DNA from: Blastomonas sp. | Lineage (GTDB): Bacteria > Pseudomonadota > Alphaproteobacteria > Sphingomonadales > Sphingomonadaceae | Assembly: GCF_030373265.1 (NCBI RefSeq) | Contig: NZ_JAUCZC010000014.1 | Span: 1 to 64,000 of the forward strand | DNA length: 64,000 nucleotides | Direction: 5' to 3' | Shown: positions 1 through 14,084 of the stretch, in pieces | Numbering within the stretch: the first letter of the stretch is position 1 | Layout of the letters: every line of letters starts with the position of its first letter | The notes under the pieces: generated by a model | Database searches by the model: none | Told to the model about the DNA's origin: nothing | Seen by the model: the letters and a program-made list of their open reading frames with translations, nothing else | Position numbers and translations under genes: made by a program

Positions 1-1
1 T

Positions 2-271
2 AACGGCTCCATCTACTCAAGAGTTGGAGCCTCCGACAATCCCGGTGCGGTTCAGTTCCCTAGTGGAGGGGCAATCGCACATATCGGAGTTTGGATCACT
101 CACATCCTTGGTCATAGCCTTCTTCATCTCTCAATCGAAGAACTCATTAAAATCGGGAGAAAGCCTATGAAAAAGATCACTGAATACATCAAAGCTGTCG
201 GTCGTTACACCCATTCGAGACTGCACGGGCTTCTGCCCACTCTCATCGTAGCAGCGATTGTAACCATCTAA
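2..271 (+). CDS. C-terminal part of an unrecognised protein (cut by window edge)
   Basis: The frame is open from the first bases of the window to a TAA at 269-271, giving 89 codons with no stop, and it ends exactly at a strong terminator. The protein is not recognised. Its last 34 residues begin with an internal ATG at 167, preceded by GGGAGA, and end in a hydrophobic stretch (LLPTLIVAAIVTI), so a separate small hydrophobic peptide starting at 167 is an alternative reading. Wobble positions are less GC-rich than in the chromosomal genes further right, which fits acquired DNA. The true start lies outside the window if the long reading is right. Confidence 0.45.
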   Translation, partial: NGSIYSRVGASDNPGAVQFPSGGAIAHIGVWITHILGHSLLHLSIEELIKIGRKPMKKITEYIKAVGRYTHSRLHGLLPTLIVAAIVTI

Positions 272-297
272 AGGCCCGCCCCACCGGCGGGCCTTTT
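271..297 (+). terminator. Rho-independent terminator
   Basis: A perfect 10-bp stem (AAGGCCCGCC at 271-280, GGCGGGCCTT at 286-295) with loop CCACC is followed by further T residues. It begins on the last base of the preceding stop codon, so it terminates the upstream gene. Confidence 0.8.
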
Positions 298-392
298 GGT
301 TTCTTCGGGCAGTTGGTCGATGCTGCCACCCTATCGGCCACCGATCCTTCGTTCACGCTCTGTGACGCGAGCAATCTGGGCTATGGGCAGGT

Positions 393-581
393 ATGAACAT
401 CGAAGTATATCAGCTGAGGGGAAGGGCGCCCTGTGCGGCGCGTATCGCAATCGAGCAGCGCCGACTCCGGCAGGCCATGACATGGGAGCAGCGCCGCGTT
501 GTTCGCGAAGTCGAGCAGATGACGCGTGAACGGGGTAAACACGAAGTCGGCGGCCCGGCGACAGCCGAACCGGAAGGATAA
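393..581 (+). CDS. Possible small upstream gene of the nuclease (62 aa)
   Basis: ATG at 393, stop at 579-581, eight bases before the ATG of the 712-aa gene. The last codons (GAA CCG GAA GGA TAA) supply the GGAAGGA that serves as ribosome binding site for the next gene, so if translated the two would be coupled. The product is Arg/Glu-rich and predicted helical (for example MTWEQRRVVREVEQ), with no family I recognise. An alternative frame (526-711) overlaps it. It could also simply be leader sequence. Confidence 0.3.
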   Translation: MNIEVYQLRGRAPCAARIAIEQRRLRQAMTWEQRRVVREVEQMTRERGKHEVGGPATAEPEG

Positions 582-589
582 GCGCTGGC

Positions 590-2728
590 ATGGCTCCCCT
601 GCATTCACTCCAAACGATCGTTGCAACCTTGCTAGCGAAACGGTCGCCGGCGGCGATGATCGCGGTGCTCAAACAGCTCGATCGGCCGCAGCCTTCGGCG
701 ACGCTGGATAGGGATGTCAAAGCGCTGGTCGACGCGCTGCCGGCACATCTGGAAGCTGACCGGAAGTCTGAGGCACTCGCCACTGCTCTGGCTGCGGTGT
801 TTGCTGACGGCGACGTTGCGATTAGCAGGATGCGGCGTAAGGGAATGCTGCGCGCGTCGAAATATGACTATCGTGGCCAGCTGATCGCCAACATCGCCCG
901 AGCGGCGCTCGACATGCGTCCGCTGGTGATGGCGCGCGACGAGCGTTTCGACTATCTCACGTCAATCCTCGCTTTGACCAAGCTCGCGCCGAGCGCGAAG
1001 TCTCTCTACGATCGCATCGTAAAAATCCTCGAGACCCGTGAAGATATTGCGCTCAAGACCGTCCTCGCTGTGGTGAACAGCCGGTTCTACAATCACAGTC
1101 TCTCGGATATGTCACTCAGCTCCCTGAAGATGGATCGGTACAGCATTGAGGACCTTTCCGACGCGGCGTCACTGATATTCATGATCTATGGTCGGATCTT
1201 TCCAATCCACGATCATTGCTGCAACCACATTGATGCCAAAGGCGTCACTGGCGCTACATCGAGCTACGAGCGGCTTTTCGTCGCGGCAGTCCGCCTGACG
1301 AAGTTCAAGGATGCAGAAGAGATGATCGACGGCCTCCCGTTCCAGGCCCGTGTCGACCGCGGTGTCGTACGTGTGGCCTCGGTCGACCCCGACATCGAAA
1401 AATCCATCCGGCTGGGCTATATTCAGGGCCAGAATCAAGTCGCGATCCGAGCGCGACACCTCAATGGGGCCAGTGCGGCGCTCTCGGTTCGCAACTTCAT
1501 TGAAAAGGGTTTCGAGAGGGGTGCCTTCGATCGGCTTGTCGAGCTTGTTGATTTTCCAGTTAGGCGGTTCCGGCTGTTTCTACCGACTGCCCCACAGATT
1601 TTTCAGATCTTCCGGACAGACGAATTGTTCCGCGACGAGCTCGAGAGCCTTCTGGTGATCGATGCAGACGTCTATGGCGATCATGACCCAAATGAGCAGA
1701 TCGCACCTCATGTCACCATGATGGATCTGCTCAAGGTGCAGCGTTATTTTAACTTCATCAGCTGCCTATATCAGCGAAAGTTGGAGGCCGTGTCGGAAGA
1801 GGCCGACCGTGCCTACCTGACGTTTACATCTACGATCCCAGTTGTGCCTCACGACCGGTTCTTCGAACAAATGCAACTCATCTTTGCCGACGAAGCCACG
1901 TCGCGCGCGATCATCGATTTGCTCGCCTTAAAATGGGAGGCACCCCATCTTGACCTCCAATATACGCCCTTGGTCGATCTCGGATCCTATTATGTGATCG
2001 CGCCGCACGTTCTGGCTGCCTCGAACTTGGCCCGCAATGTCACCGTGTCGAACAAGCTGCGCTCGTTCGCCCTGGCCTTGGGCGATCCCATGATGAAGGC
2101 AGTCATCGAGGCCTTCGCGTCCGCCGGCTTCAAGGTCCGCTCTGATTTCAAAATCCGAGCCGGTGGCAAGTCGGTCGAACTCGACATCGTCGCATGGCGC
2201 GATAACGCGCTATTCTTGTTCGAGTGCAAGAACGCATATCATCCTTGCTCCCCCCACGAGATGCGGAACAGTTTCGATGCGATCCGCGAAGGACGCGATC
2301 AACTCGATGTACGCGGTGAGCTATTCCGGCAAGCGCACCACCAGGCCGGTTTGTTCGCTAAACTCGGGTGGGATGTGCCGCCGACCGATCAAGTCCATAC
2401 CGGCATCATCATCGCCAACCGGATCTTCCATGGCGCGCGGTTCAACGGCCATCCCGTTCGCCAGGCCCATGAGCTTATCAATGTCTTGCGGAACGGCACC
2501 ATGGGCGGGGATGGACACGATCTTCGTTTTTGGGCGAATACTGAGTTCTCGACCGGCGATTTGACCACCTATCTTGGTGCGGACTCGGTAGCCGCCAAGC
2601 AGCTTGCTGCGCTTGAGCCTGTGCGGCTCGAGTTCGATCTTGGGGCTAAGCGACTGGTTTTTGACTCGTACGCGCTGGATCCGGAGCGGCTGATCGCGAT
2701 CATGTCCGAAAGCTACGGTAAGGCATGA
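590..2728 (+). CDS. Orphan 712-aa protein with C-terminal PD-(D/E)XK nuclease-like domain
   Basis: Residues 1 to about 490 are mostly helical and match no family I know. The C-terminal part shows the core of a PD-(D/E)XK (restriction-endonuclease-fold) domain: a helix carrying E507 (AVIEAF), a strand with D532 (ELDIVAW), then E545-x-K547 in a hydrophobic strand (LFLFECKN), with a following helix rich in polar residues. This is the classic E...D...ExK spacing of Mrr/NERD-like nucleases. No methyltransferase, helicase or integrase lies beside it. It starts at ATG 590 with GGAAGGA 12 bases upstream. It lies on the 3' side of a tRNA-Lys gene, in DNA with mobile-element debris, so a defence or element-maintenance role is plausible but inferred. 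Substrate (DNA or RNA) cannot be told from sequence. Confidence 0.85.
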   Translation: MAPLHSLQTIVATLLAKRSPAAMIAVLKQLDRPQPSATLDRDVKALVDALPAHLEADRKSEALATALAAVFADGDVAISRMRRKGMLRASKYDYRGQLIANIARAALDMRPLVMARDERFDYLTSILALTKLAPSAKSLYDRIVKILETREDIALKTVLAVVNSRFYNHSLSDMSLSSLKMDRYSIEDLSDAASLIFMIYGRIFPIHDHCCNHIDAKGVTGATSSYERLFVAAVRLTKFKDAEEMIDGLPFQARVDRGVVRVASVDPDIEKSIRLGYIQGQNQVAIRARHLNGASAALSVRNFIEKGFERGAFDRLVELVDFPVRRFRLFLPTAPQIFQIFRTDELFRDELESLLVIDADVYGDHDPNEQIAPHVTMMDLLKVQRYFNFISCLYQRKLEAVSEEADRAYLTFTSTIPVVPHDRFFEQMQLIFADEATSRAIIDLLALKWEAPHLDLQYTPLVDLGSYYVIAPHVLAASNLARNVTVSNKLRSFALALGDPMMKAVIEAFASAGFKVRSDFKIRAGGKSVELDIVAWRDNALFLFECKNAYHPCSPHEMRNSFDAIREGRDQLDVRGELFRQAHHQAGLFAKLGWDVPPTDQVHTGIIIANRIFHGARFNGHPVRQAHELINVLRNGTMGGDGHDLRFWANTEFSTGDLTTYLGADSVAAKQLAALEPVRLEFDLGAKRLVFDSYALDPERLIAIMSESYGKA

Positions 2729-3081
2729 TCTAGCGCGCGCGTCGACGCGGCGTATCCGTATCGCAAACGAGCGCGAGGCGCTCCGATTAAGGTGCCGGCT
2801 TGGGATCGCAATGCATCTGGGGGTGCGAGATTAGACTAGGCGAAAGTAACGACCGGGGATGTCGCATTGCGGTCATGATTGTCCTTGTTGTATGAAAACA
2901 TGCGGGCTTACGGATGCAGCCGGCGGCCTATTAATGACCGTGGTGAGGGCCCGTTGCTGTCGGCATGCGGACGATTGTGCGAACGGTAGGTTTCAGCAGG
3001 ACCTGCCTTCGAACGCTTGGCTATCGAGCGGCGCATGTCGCGTCGACAGCCGACATCGCACGTTCGGGTAACGCATGGTAG

Positions 3082-3231
3082 TGAACCCAAGTTCGTCGCC
3101 CGACACCCTTCATGGAATTGACCGCCAAATTGCCAAGATAGCCGGCGTGCTGATTCGAAGTCTCGTTGAGGCCCCGCAAGGTTGTTGTCGAGATTCAAAC
3201 GGCCATCCGACCAAAGAATGCACTGACCCAA
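3082..3231 (-). pseudogene. Decayed IS66-type transposase (TnpC) fragment
   Basis: A 50-codon stretch reads DGRLNLDNN followed, without gaps, by residues that keep the spacing of the IS66 TnpC C-terminal motif (DGRxExDNN...R...RK...F.G......SL). It has no intact start, an in-frame TAA lies just upstream, and the rest of the transposase is missing. The match is from memory of the family and is weak in places, so it may be chance. Confidence 0.35.
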
Positions 3232-3233
3232 TT

Positions 3234-3257
3234 GTTACCTAGGGCGTTACCTAGAGC
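3234..3257. repeat. Tandem 12-bp direct repeat
   Basis: GTTACCTAGGGC at 3234-3245 is followed directly by GTTACCTAGAGC at 3246-3257, one mismatch. It lies about 60 bp from the tRNA-Lys 3' end and could be an integrase arm-type site or just a short duplication. Confidence 0.6.
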
Positions 3258-3317
3258 TTGAGGTGGTCAAAGCAGCCAAAATCGACCGCTTTTAACTCTT
3301 TGTTATTATGAGGAAAA

Positions 3318-3393
<76 letters not shown>

Positions 3394-12531: not shown

Positions 12532-14084
12532 ACCGACAATCCTGTCATTTTCGCTCCGGGGATGCCATGCGCGACCTCTGCGGTGGCGCGGCGCTTCATC
12601 GTGTTGCTGCGGGTCGAGACCTGATCGACCACCTGGAAGTGGCTGAGCCACGCATCGGGGGTGACCTCGCACACCACATAGCCGCGCTGGTCGTTGAGGA
12701 ACTTGAGCTCGGGATTGTTCTTCATCATCTGCTCGCTGCCATAGCGCAGGTCCGATCCGTCACCGCCGCTGCTGATCGAGGTCGATACGATCTCGGTGCC
12801 CACCACCTTGTCGCGGTGGACCAGATCGCCGACGAAGTTCTGATGCTCGTCGCCGGTGAGCACGATGACATTGCCCAACCCCGCCATCCGGCCGAGCATC
12901 CGCTGGCGCGGGACCTCGTAGGCGGCCCAGCTGTCCATGTTGGCGATGCGGGTATCCTCGTTGGCGGCGCGGCGCCGGTCGAGGCTCATCATCATGATCT
13001 GCTGGCCCAGGCAATTCCAGCGTGCCTGATTGCTCGACAGGTTCTTGGCGAGCCAGGCCTCCTGCTCGGCGCCCAGGACCTGCGCGGTCTTGTCGTGGAC
13101 GCCTTCGCACAACGGCTTGAAGCCATCGTCGCAGGCCTGGTCACTGCGATACGAGCGGGTATCGAGCAGCTGGATTTCGGCGAGGTTGCCGAAGCGCGCG
13201 GTGCGATGGAAGGTGCCAGTGCCGAAGCGCGGCATGTTGGCCCTGCGCACCGGCATATGCTCGTACCACGCCTGGAGCGCGGCGGCGCGGCGCAGTTCGA
13301 ACATCTCGGCGGGCGAGCCGCTGCCGCTGATCCCGGCGACCCAGTTGTTGTCAATCTCGTGGTCGTCGAAGGTGGGGTAGAAGCTGTGCGCGGCGTGCGC
13401 GCGCTGCAGATCGGTGTCGGTCTTGTACTGCGCATAACGCTGGCGATAATCGGCCAGGTCATACAGCAACTGCCCGGCATGCTGGCGTACCGGCACCTGC
13501 AGCCTGCCGGTGAAATACGATGCGCTGCTCGGGCTGCCGCGCCATTCGTAGATATAGTCGCCATAATGGAAGACGAAGTCGAGCTCCTCGCGCGCCAGAT
13601 GGTTGTATGCGCCGAAAAAGCCGTCCTCGTAATTCTGGCAGCCGACAACGCCGAACTTGAGCTTATCCATCGCGGCCCCGGCGGCGGGCAGGGTGCGTGC
13701 TCGGCCCGAGAAGCTGCGCTCTCCGCCCGCGGTGAAGCGGTACCAATAGGGGCGATTGGCTTGCAATCCGGCGACCTCGACATGCACCGAATGCGCGACC
13801 TCGGGCCGCGCCACGGTCGTGCCCTTGGCGACGATGGTAGCAAAGCGGTCGTCGCTCGCGACCTCCCATTCGACATCCATCGGGGTCATCGCCATTCCGC
13901 CGTGCAATTCGAGCGGATCGGGCGCCAGCCGCGTCCAGATCACGAAGCCATCCTGAGAAGGGTCGCCCGAGGCGATTCCCAGTGCGAACGGAAAGGTGCG
14001 AAAGACGCTTTGCGCGCGCAGGATACCGGGCGCGCCGATCACGACGAGCGGAGCGGCGGCGATGAACAGGCGGCGGGAGAGCAT
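12528..14084 (-). CDS. phoD: PhoD-family alkaline phosphatase/phosphodiesterase
   Basis: 518 aa. N-terminal SRRLFIAAAP resembles a twin-arginine signal, as usual for PhoD, which is exported folded with its metals. It has the N-terminal fibronectin-like domain (FALGIASGDPSQDGFVIWTRL) and the metallophosphatase core (GVVGCQNYEDGFFGAY, FHYGDYIYEW, PTFDDHEIDNNW, LTGDEHQNF). Paired with the downstream pyrophosphatase, it suggests extracellular release of phosphate from organic esters. Pho regulation is likely but I did not find a clear Pho box in the 100 bp upstream. Confidence 0.92.
   Translation of the reverse strand: MLSRRLFIAAAPLVVIGAPGILRAQSVFRTFPFALGIASGDPSQDGFVIWTRLAPDPLELHGGMAMTPMDVEWEVASDDRFATIVAKGTTVARPEVAHSVHVEVAGLQANRPYWYRFTAGGERSFSGRARTLPAAGAAMDKLKFGVVGCQNYEDGFFGAYNHLAREELDFVFHYGDYIYEWRGSPSSASYFTGRLQVPVRQHAGQLLYDLADYRQRYAQYKTDTDLQRAHAAHSFYPTFDDHEIDNNWVAGISGSGSPAEMFELRRAAALQAWYEHMPVRRANMPRFGTGTFHRTARFGNLAEIQLLDTRSYRSDQACDDGFKPLCEGVHDKTAQVLGAEQEAWLAKNLSSNQARWNCLGQQIMMMSLDRRRAANEDTRIANMDSWAAYEVPRQRMLGRMAGLGNVIVLTGDEHQNFVGDLVHRDKVVGTEIVSTSISSGGDGSDLRYGSEQMMKNNPELKFLNDQRGYVVCEVTPDAWLSHFQVVDQVSTRSNTMKRRATAEVAHGIPGAKMTGLSV

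What the first reader, a model, noticed from the sequence alone, without database searches (positions are those of the whole stretch)
590..2728. Orphan 712-aa PD-(D/E)XK nuclease beside tRNA-Lys: candidate undescribed defence protein
The C-terminal E507/D532/E545-x-K547 arrangement is seen directly and is the active-site pattern of the PD-(D/E)XK fold. The N-terminal 490 residues match no family I know. It stands alone, with no methylase or helicase, in DNA on the 3' side of a tRNA gene with transposase debris. That setting is typical of single-gene defence or abortive-infection cargo, where a large sensor domain is joined to a nuclease. Function is inference.
Basis: partly seen in the sequence, partly recalled or inferred. 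Interest (0 to 1): 0.7.

Follow-up and report, generated by a model that had tools for sequence, protein, structure and literature searches.

The report
Mobile one-gene nuclease, likely anti-phage
A bacterium carries, at the edge of a mobile DNA island in a tRNA gene, a large protein that joins an unfamiliar helical domain to a nuclease-type domain; its rare relatives travel on plasmids and islands, several of them beside known anti-virus genes, so it may be an undescribed single-gene defence.

Summary
The ORF is real: 712 aa, near-full-length homologues at 18 other loci. AlphaFold2 (pLDDT 85.7) gives an alpha-beta-beta-beta-alpha-beta core at 500-608 with D532 on strand 2 and E545-x-K547 on strand 3; these and Q571 are kept in all 13 aligned members. 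Residues 1-490 match no Pfam family above cut-off and no solved fold significantly. The gene lies in an integrative island in tRNA-Lys: a 49-bp copy of the tRNA 3' end lies beside a tyrosine integrase on another contig (C40). 'Stands alone' is untestable: the contig starts 589 bp upstream. Homologues are rare (3 of 298 family genomes, own included; 8 of 72,556 plasmids) and mobile. Six of 15 neighbourhoods hold Septu, type I R-M, AbiE, a Wadjet JetD or a PD-T7-1 homologue; I judged 0 of 12 control stretches to hold a comparable system, but by single ORFs the excess is not significant (11 of 132 verified, at most 6 of 136; p 0.14). No partner gene is conserved. Best reading: single-gene anti-phage/anti-element effector, helical sensor plus NERD-type nuclease, analogous to Shedu but not a member. 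Activity, trigger and substrate are inferred.

The parts
590..2728 (+). 712-aa protein: helical N-terminal region plus C-terminal PD-(D/E)XK (NERD-type) nuclease
   Evidence: ORF; homologues; dN/dS 0.17 against L004; AF2 model pLDDT 85.7, pTM 0.86
590..1924 (+). residues 1-445: mainly alpha-helical N-terminal region, candidate sensor/regulatory domain (role inferred), no known fold
   Evidence: Foldseek of residues 1-490 against PDB, best E 0.4
1925..2074 (+). residues 446-495: conserved motif before the nuclease core (D455-x-Q457-Y458-x-P460 ... N479-x-x-R482-N483), inside the PADLOC viperin-associated NERD match 434-638
2075..2509 (+). residues 496-640: PD-(D/E)XK core, alpha-beta-beta-beta-alpha-beta
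   Evidence: secondary structure H500-511 E515-524 E527-537 E540-547 H555-578 E602-608; Foldseek probability 0.99-1.00, E 0.03-0.14, to 2inb, 2okf, 1y88, 3fov (the listing does not say which model residues align); profile match to 1y88 E 4e-4 at profile positions 512-560
2177..2185 (+). E530 and D532, metal-binding acid(s) on strand 2 (role recalled for the fold)
   Evidence: D532 in 13 of 13, E or D at 530 in 13 of 13
2222..2230 (+). E545-C-K547, the (D/E)XK motif on strand 3
   Evidence: 13 of 13, 20 of 20 rows
2300..2302 (+). Q571 on the helix after strand 3
   Evidence: 13 of 13
3318..3393 (-). tRNA-Lys (CTT), integration target
   Evidence: ARAGORN and Rfam
3314..3362 (-). att core: 49 bp, exact second copy at G000:C40:2699-2747 beside a tyrosine integrase (C40:1178-2557, -)
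1..3317 (.). visible part of the genomic island (gene G+C 57.3%, flanks 55.5-56.4%, rest of window 64.0%)
1..58 (.). possible IS3-family element end at the contig edge
   Evidence: one of two matching records examined (the other)

Best explanation
A single-gene, horizontally carried anti-phage / anti-mobile-element effector. The helical N-terminal ~445-490 residues sense an infection cue or hold the enzyme inactive; when triggered, the C-terminal PD-(D/E)XK nuclease (D532/E545, lysine K547, helper Q571) cuts DNA, either invader DNA directly or the cell's own DNA as abortive infection. Supported by computation: nuclease fold and conserved active site, an N-terminal region without known relatives, the tRNA-Lys island, mobility, several defence-gene neighbourhoods, no conserved partner. 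Inferred: catalytic activity, DNA rather than RNA as substrate, the sensing role of the N-terminus, protection from phage.
For: Fold and motif. PADLOC viperin-associated NERD profile E 1.7e-7 for the window protein and 12 of 13 members at E <= 0.1, best 5.5e-10. Island: 49-bp att copy plus integrase at C40, the same integrase segment at 93% and 88% in two same-genus genomes. A second mobile setting: three genomes (L007, L008, L010) share 13,826 bp at 99.8-99.9%, beginning at tRNA-Leu with no match to its left, carrying an integrase-like ORF (by eye), the family member and, in L008, a PD-T7-1 homologue at E 4.5e-118. Neighbours, scanned one by one: PtuA/PtuB in L009 and L022, AbiEi/AbiEii in L020, type I methylase in L017, JetD in L011. 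With L008 that is 6 of 15 loci; against 0 of 12 controls as I judged them, one-sided Fisher 0.017. PADLOC models matched at E <= 1e-15: 188 by 132 neighbour ORFs, 14 by 136 control ORFs; models are redundant. An ORF at the other end of the window's own island matches PADLOC candidate models, best E 5.6e-10. Patchy: 3 of 298 family genomes including its own.
Against: No experiment. By single ORFs the neighbour excess is not significant: 11 of 132 (a lower bound; only 19 of the 132 were scanned singly) against at most 6 of 136, p 0.14. The locus criterion was set after seeing the neighbours. In three annotated plasmids (L015, L016, L018) an error-prone polymerase/mutagenesis cassette lies upstream, which could mean DNA-damage work. 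No Foldseek hit at E <= 0.001. Pfam NERD below cut-off (17.1 against 22.1 bits). Neighbouring cargo may only share a vehicle.
Confidence: 0.6

Rival explanations
1. Modification-dependent (type IV-like) restriction: the N-terminal region reads modified bases in phage DNA and the nuclease cuts it, which explains the lack of a cognate methylase.
For: No methylase or other partner recurs beside the gene in the loci looked at (annotation; by eye; upstream ORFs); PD-(D/E)XK domain.
Against: Residues 1-490 match no Pfam family above cut-off and no PDB fold at E <= 0.001, so no known base-reading domain was seen. It is a sub-case of defence rather than an alternative to it.
Confidence: 0.15
2. An element-upkeep factor: a nuclease-fold protein that helps excision, transfer or replication of the island or plasmid that carries it, like the XisH/fdxN excision factors that are among the best structural matches.
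For: 2inb and 2okf (XisH, fdxN excision controlling factor) rank 4 and 8 in Foldseek, probability 1.00, E 0.031 and 0.055; the gene rides on mobile elements.
Against: Members sit on unrelated vehicles (plasmids typed MOBF, MOBP or MOBQ; tRNA-Lys and tRNA-Leu islands) and no integrase or relaxase neighbour recurs in all of them; the XisH-type chains are 128-129 aa and so cannot cover residues 1-490.
Confidence: 0.1
3. A DNA-repair or SOS-linked nuclease spread on plasmids.
For: Three annotated plasmids carry an error-prone polymerase/mutagenesis cassette upstream of the gene (in L018 an IS21 element lies between); L005 and L006 share that DNA at 95.4% over 8.2 kb and 99.9% over 17.9 kb.
Against: These five loci are one close lineage; the other annotated loci lack the cassette within 9 kb. 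A LexA-box scan was uninformative: the promoters used as positive control also gave none.
Confidence: 0.1

Closest known systems
Viperin-associated NERD protein (PADLOC PDLC02906)
   Same: Shares the nuclease core and about 60 residues before it (434-638 aligned to 365-525 of 542; E 1.7e-7).
   Different: Residues 1-433 are not covered; no viperin was named in the annotated loci or among the 25 of 188 PADLOC families shown for the neighbours. No viperin profile was run on its own.
Shedu (SduA, DUF4263)
   Same: Works alike: one protein, varied N-terminal sensor joined to a C-terminal PD-(D/E)XK nuclease (PMC12137116, passages seen).
   Different: No SduA or DUF4263 match for the window protein at E <= 10.
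NERD (PF08378) in PglW of BREX type 2, DndF, Mokosh type I and Nhi-like proteins
   Same: Same broad nuclease type; NERD is listed or discussed as a defence domain (passages of PMC10952713, PMC12839542, PMC10853773).
   Different: Below the Pfam cut-off; no kinase, helicase or ATPase domain matched.
Can2/Card1-type CARF-PD-(D/E)XK nucleases
   Same: Weak nuclease-core match (PADLOC CARF_PDDEXK E 0.014 for the window protein, 8.9e-6 for the best member, 6 of 13 members; Can2 in Foldseek, E 0.057, probability 0.66).
   Different: The window protein's CARF-model matches lie within residues 515-549 only; the N-terminal model is mostly helical and has no significant PDB match.
Upx (stand-alone PD-(D/E)XK defence protein; name and nature recalled)
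   Same: A single-gene nuclease-fold defence protein (recalled); its cryo-EM entry 9wuf is rank 3 for the N-terminal model.
   Different: That match is not significant (E 1.1, probability 0.16, TM 0.23) and no sequence match was found.

Membership tests
PD-(D/E)XK nuclease superfamily | alpha-beta-beta-beta-alpha-beta core with D on strand 2 and (D/E)XK on strand 3 (definition recalled) | tested here: met
   AF2 model and conservation; Foldseek domain matches with probability 0.99-1.00 but E 0.03-0.14; profile match to 1y88, E 4e-4
PD-(D/E)XK nuclease superfamily | metal-dependent cleavage of nucleic acid | not testable with these tools
   needs protein
NERD (Pfam PF08378) | score above Pfam gathering cut-off | tested here: not met
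   17.1 bits against 22.1 for the window protein; 7 of 13 members match at E <= 1, best 0.0024 (their bits were not shown)
Viperin-associated NERD (PDLC02906) | match along the whole profile | tested here: not met
   only profile 365-525 of 542
Viperin-associated NERD (PDLC02906) | viperin gene next door | tested here: inconclusive
   none named in annotated loci; the window's upstream side is cut off; unannotated loci judged by eye
Shedu (SduA) | DUF4263 domain | tested here: not met
   no Pfam or PADLOC match at E <= 10
CARF-PD-(D/E)XK (Can2/Card1) | CARF ligand domain at the N-terminus | tested here: not met
   matches restricted to 515-549; mostly helical N-terminal model without significant PDB match
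Anti-phage defence system | protection from phage | not testable with these tools
   needs plaque assays
Anti-phage defence system | carriage on mobile elements, patchy distribution | tested here: met
   plasmids, tRNA-Lys island, tRNA-Leu island; 3 of 298 family genomes
Anti-phage defence system | enrichment beside known defence genes | tested here: inconclusive
   named systems in 6 of 15 loci against 0 of 12 controls as judged by me, p 0.017; verified single ORFs 11 of 132 against at most 6 of 136, p 0.14
Classical restriction-modification | cognate methylase | tested here: not met
   none recurs beside the gene; among the annotated loci only L017 has a type I system next door; unannotated loci by eye; upstream side in the window unknown

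The most novel reading that the evidence does not exclude
An undescribed single-gene immune family of Pseudomonadota in which a ~490-residue helical domain of no known fold, with its own invariant residues (G85, R88, S90, Y92, K156, E270, S272, R274, G276, Y277, Q279), senses an infection signal and unleashes a NERD-type nuclease.
Probability: 0.5. Interest if true: 0.65.

Novelty: new variant of a known kind. Interest (0 to 1): 0.5.

Why it matters
If true, it adds a compact, self-contained defence protein with a new kind of sensor domain to the set of sensor-plus-nuclease systems, and gives ready test cases: three genomes share one tRNA-Leu island that carries it (with a PD-T7-1 homologue in L008), and copies identical over 638 aa sit on plasmids of Rhizorhabdus and Sphingobium. 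The architecture is known in kind (Shedu, CARF nucleases), so the new part is the N-terminal domain and its trigger.

Tried and rejected
E507 as catalytic acid: rejected, column not conserved. A two-gene unit with the small ORF 393-581: rejected, no like ORF upstream of 13 other members examined (compared by eye) and no Pfam match. DUF5919 match at residues 282-348 (E 0.04, below cut-off): treated as chance, 1 of 13 members. Viral origin: 0 of 50,697 phage records; viral contigs 0 with the single protein and 1 with the alignment (L022). Structural neighbours of residues 1-490: none at E <= 0.001, best 0.4. Whole-model viral fold search: none at E <= 0.001. LexA boxes: uninformative, the positive control failed. 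G785 and G762 hits match profile positions 467-641 and 463-556 only, in other large proteins, and were left out of the family; G765 matches positions 568-721 in a 174-aa frame and gave no tblastn match to the window protein at E <= 1, left out. L014 (gene interrupted by an IS5-family element) was described only and left out of alignments and tree; its flanks were kept in the neighbour count. L018 is shorter at the N-terminus (638 aa). L002 and L003 gave the same scores as L016 and L008 and were taken as the same sequences. Neighbour set: L015 stood for its lineage (L005, L006, L016, L018 not counted), L008 for L007 and L010. Control set: 14 stretches (159 ORFs) prepared, 12 scanned (136 ORFs); L071, window:30001-44000 and one 1901-aa ORF of L064 were dropped for the size limit before scanning. 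Literature: searches listed no paper that I recognised as describing this family, but it has no name, so text search is a weak test; papers were seen as listings or passages only.

Full report
OBSERVATION. The ORF at 590-2728 is present and complete: 712 aa from ATG. It is a real gene: near-full-length relatives lie at 18 other loci (L004-L013, L015-L017, L019-L022 and L067), with one shorter copy (L018) and one interrupted (L014). Identity over the alignment is 26-63%. dN/dS against L004 is 0.17 by NG86, dS 1.58. The window begins at base 1 of contig C14, so only 589 bases upstream are visible.

NUCLEASE DOMAIN. An AlphaFold2 model from 11 sequences has mean pLDDT 85.7 and pTM 0.86. Residues 500-608 show helix, three strands, helix, strand. 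D532 is on the second strand and E545-C-K547 ends the third. Foldseek against the PDB found no match at E <= 0.001. The lowest E-values (0.023-0.038) are mostly long, low-probability alignments to Bax1; domain-sized matches with probability 0.99-1.00 and E 0.03-0.14 are to 2inb and 2okf (XisH/fdxN excision factors), 1y88 (AF1548) and 3fov. A profile of 13 members matched only 1y88 in the PDB, E 4e-4, positions 512-560. In 13 rows D532, E545, K547 and Q571 are invariant, position 530 is E or D, position 499 is D in 12 and E in one, and position 507 varies. All 20 rows examined (19 distinct) keep E/D-x-D ...

FAMILY LABEL. Pfam NERD is below its cut-off (17.1 against 22.1 bits); 7 of 13 members match it at E <= 1. 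PADLOC's viperin-associated NERD model matches residues 434-638 at E 1.7e-7 and 12 of 13 members at E <= 0.1, over profile 365-525 of 542. NCBIfam and PHROGs give nothing at E <= 10.

N-TERMINAL REGION. Residues 1-490, modelled alone, give pLDDT 84.3, mostly helices with short strands. Foldseek finds no PDB match at E <= 0.001; the best is E 0.4, probability 0.09. It is less conserved than the nuclease (mean identity to the commonest residue 0.51-0.53 for blocks in 61-445, 0.63 for 496-580) but has invariant residues of its own: 12 of 190 at 61-250 and 8 of 95 at 251-345, against 11 of 85 at 496-580. A ligand- or partner-binding role is inference.

ISLAND. tRNA-Lys is at 3318-3393, minus strand. 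A 49-bp stretch, window 3314-3362, recurs exactly at C40:2699-2747 of the same genome. Next to it, C40:1178-2557 encodes a tyrosine integrase (Phage_integrase E 4.9e-16). The integrase-plus-att segment is 93% and 88% identical in two other genomes of the genus (G157, G1025). The far part of C40 (13991-18214) matches DNA about 1.2 kb beyond the tRNA 3' end in G1024 at 82%; in the other seven tRNA-Lys neighbourhoods fetched (L042, L044, L046, L048-L051) only the att/tRNA stretch matched, so this synteny rests on one genome of eight. C14:1-3317 and C40:1-2747 thus look like the two ends of one island, or of stacked islands, with an unread middle; that they belong together is inferred. C40:1-54 recurs at the ends of contigs C1, C23 and C29 and inside C32, and window 1-58 matches DNA beside an IS3-family transposase gene in one of two records examined, so the assembly may break at insertion sequences. 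An ORF at C40:74-760, HNH-like by eye and without a Pfam match at E <= 0.001, matches PADLOC candidate models at up to E 5.6e-10. The gene has 57.3% G+C against 64.0% for the rest of the window.

DISTRIBUTION AND MOBILITY. Matches: 3 of 298 genomes of the family, 2 of 385 of the class, 4 of 398 of the phylum, each count including the window's own genome; the other three in the phylum are partial. Also 8 of 72,556 plasmids, 0 of 50,697 phages, 10 loci in the genome collection and 1 viral-collection contig. Hosts are sphingomonads, Rhizobiaceae, beta- and gammaproteobacteria. In a midpoint-rooted tree the rhizobial copies and L067 split from the other 17 rows (100/99; long branches, so a hint only). 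L008, L010 and L007 share 13,826 bp at 99.8-99.9% from a tRNA-Leu gene onward, with no match to its left: one island in different chromosomal places. Plasmids of Rhizorhabdus and Sphingobium carry copies identical over 638 aa.

NEIGHBOURS. I scanned 132 ORFs within 7 kb of 15 members and 136 ORFs from 12 shifted control stretches of the same plasmids and genomes with PADLOC at E <= 1e-15: 188 models matched against 14. Models are redundant and only the first 25 of the 188 were shown. Nineteen of the 132 were also scanned singly: 11 match at E <= 1e-15, namely PtuA and PtuB (Septu) in L009 and L022, AbiEi and AbiEii in L020, a type I methylase in L017, JetD in L011, PD-T7-1 in L008, an HNH-type candidate (PDC-M68A) in L019 and mad3 in L067. 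RmrA and HEC-01A matches were not assigned to an ORF. Taking the first six loci as holding a named defence gene or system gives 6 of 15 against 0 of 12 controls, one-sided Fisher 0.017; verified single ORFs give 11 of 132 against at most 6 of 136, p 0.14. The criterion was set after seeing the data, so enrichment is suggestive only. L004 has a caspase-like ORF just upstream (Peptidase_C14 E 4.7e-39; PADLOC caspase E 1.7e-11). No partner gene was seen to recur across the family (unannotated loci by eye).

MECHANISM. Most likely a self-contained sensor-effector: the N-terminal region keeps the nuclease off until an infection cue, then DNA is cut. With no methylase seen, self-protection would come from the trigger rather than from host marking. 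Whether it spares or kills the cell is open. Shedu shows that one protein with an N-terminal regulatory domain and a PD-(D/E)XK nuclease can protect alone (passages of PMC12137116). NERD domains have been proposed as suicidal back-up effectors in BREX and Dnd systems (passages of PMC12839542 and PMC10853773). PD-T7-1, a homologue of which is the neighbour in L008, protects E. coli from phages (passages of PMC9519451).

VERDICT. It works like Shedu-type nucleases but meets no family's membership test beyond the PD-(D/E)XK superfamily.

Noticed in passing
L040 (G000:C40) 74-760 and 1178-2557: Inferred far end of the same tRNA-Lys island: an HNH-like ORF (by eye) matching PADLOC candidate models and a tyrosine integrase beside the att copy.
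   Followed up: partly
L008, L010, L007 8272-22097: One element of at least 13.8 kb at tRNA-Leu, 99.8-99.9% identical in three genomes with unrelated left flanks, carrying the family member and (scanned in L008) a PD-T7-1 homologue about 100 bp downstream.
   Followed up: partly
L004 8350-9894: Caspase-like (Peptidase C14) ORF immediately upstream of the closest homologue; its end overlaps the longest possible reading of that homologue's frame.
   Followed up: partly
L021 7324-8667: 447-aa ORF just upstream of the Rhizobium homologue with a D..LVVF..FSDK-like stretch that could be another nuclease; no Pfam (E <= 0.001) or PADLOC (E <= 1e-5) match.
   Followed up: partly
L015, L016, L018 upstream of the homologue: Damage-inducible mutagenesis protein / DUF6504 / error-prone polymerase cassette upstream of the family member in one plasmid lineage; a DUF4238 gene follows it in L016 and L018.
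   Followed up: partly
L046 (G246:C7) 1548-1592 and 13726-13843: Same genus, a second tRNA-Lys att-like copy 12 kb from the tRNA: tRNA-Lys may be an integration hot spot in this genus.
   Followed up: no
L014 8932-13240: Homologue on a Novosphingobium plasmid interrupted by an IS5-family element.
   Followed up: no
C40:1-54: 54-bp stretch shared with the ends of contigs C1, C23, C29 and a place in C32: probable multi-copy insertion-sequence end breaking the assembly.
   Followed up: no
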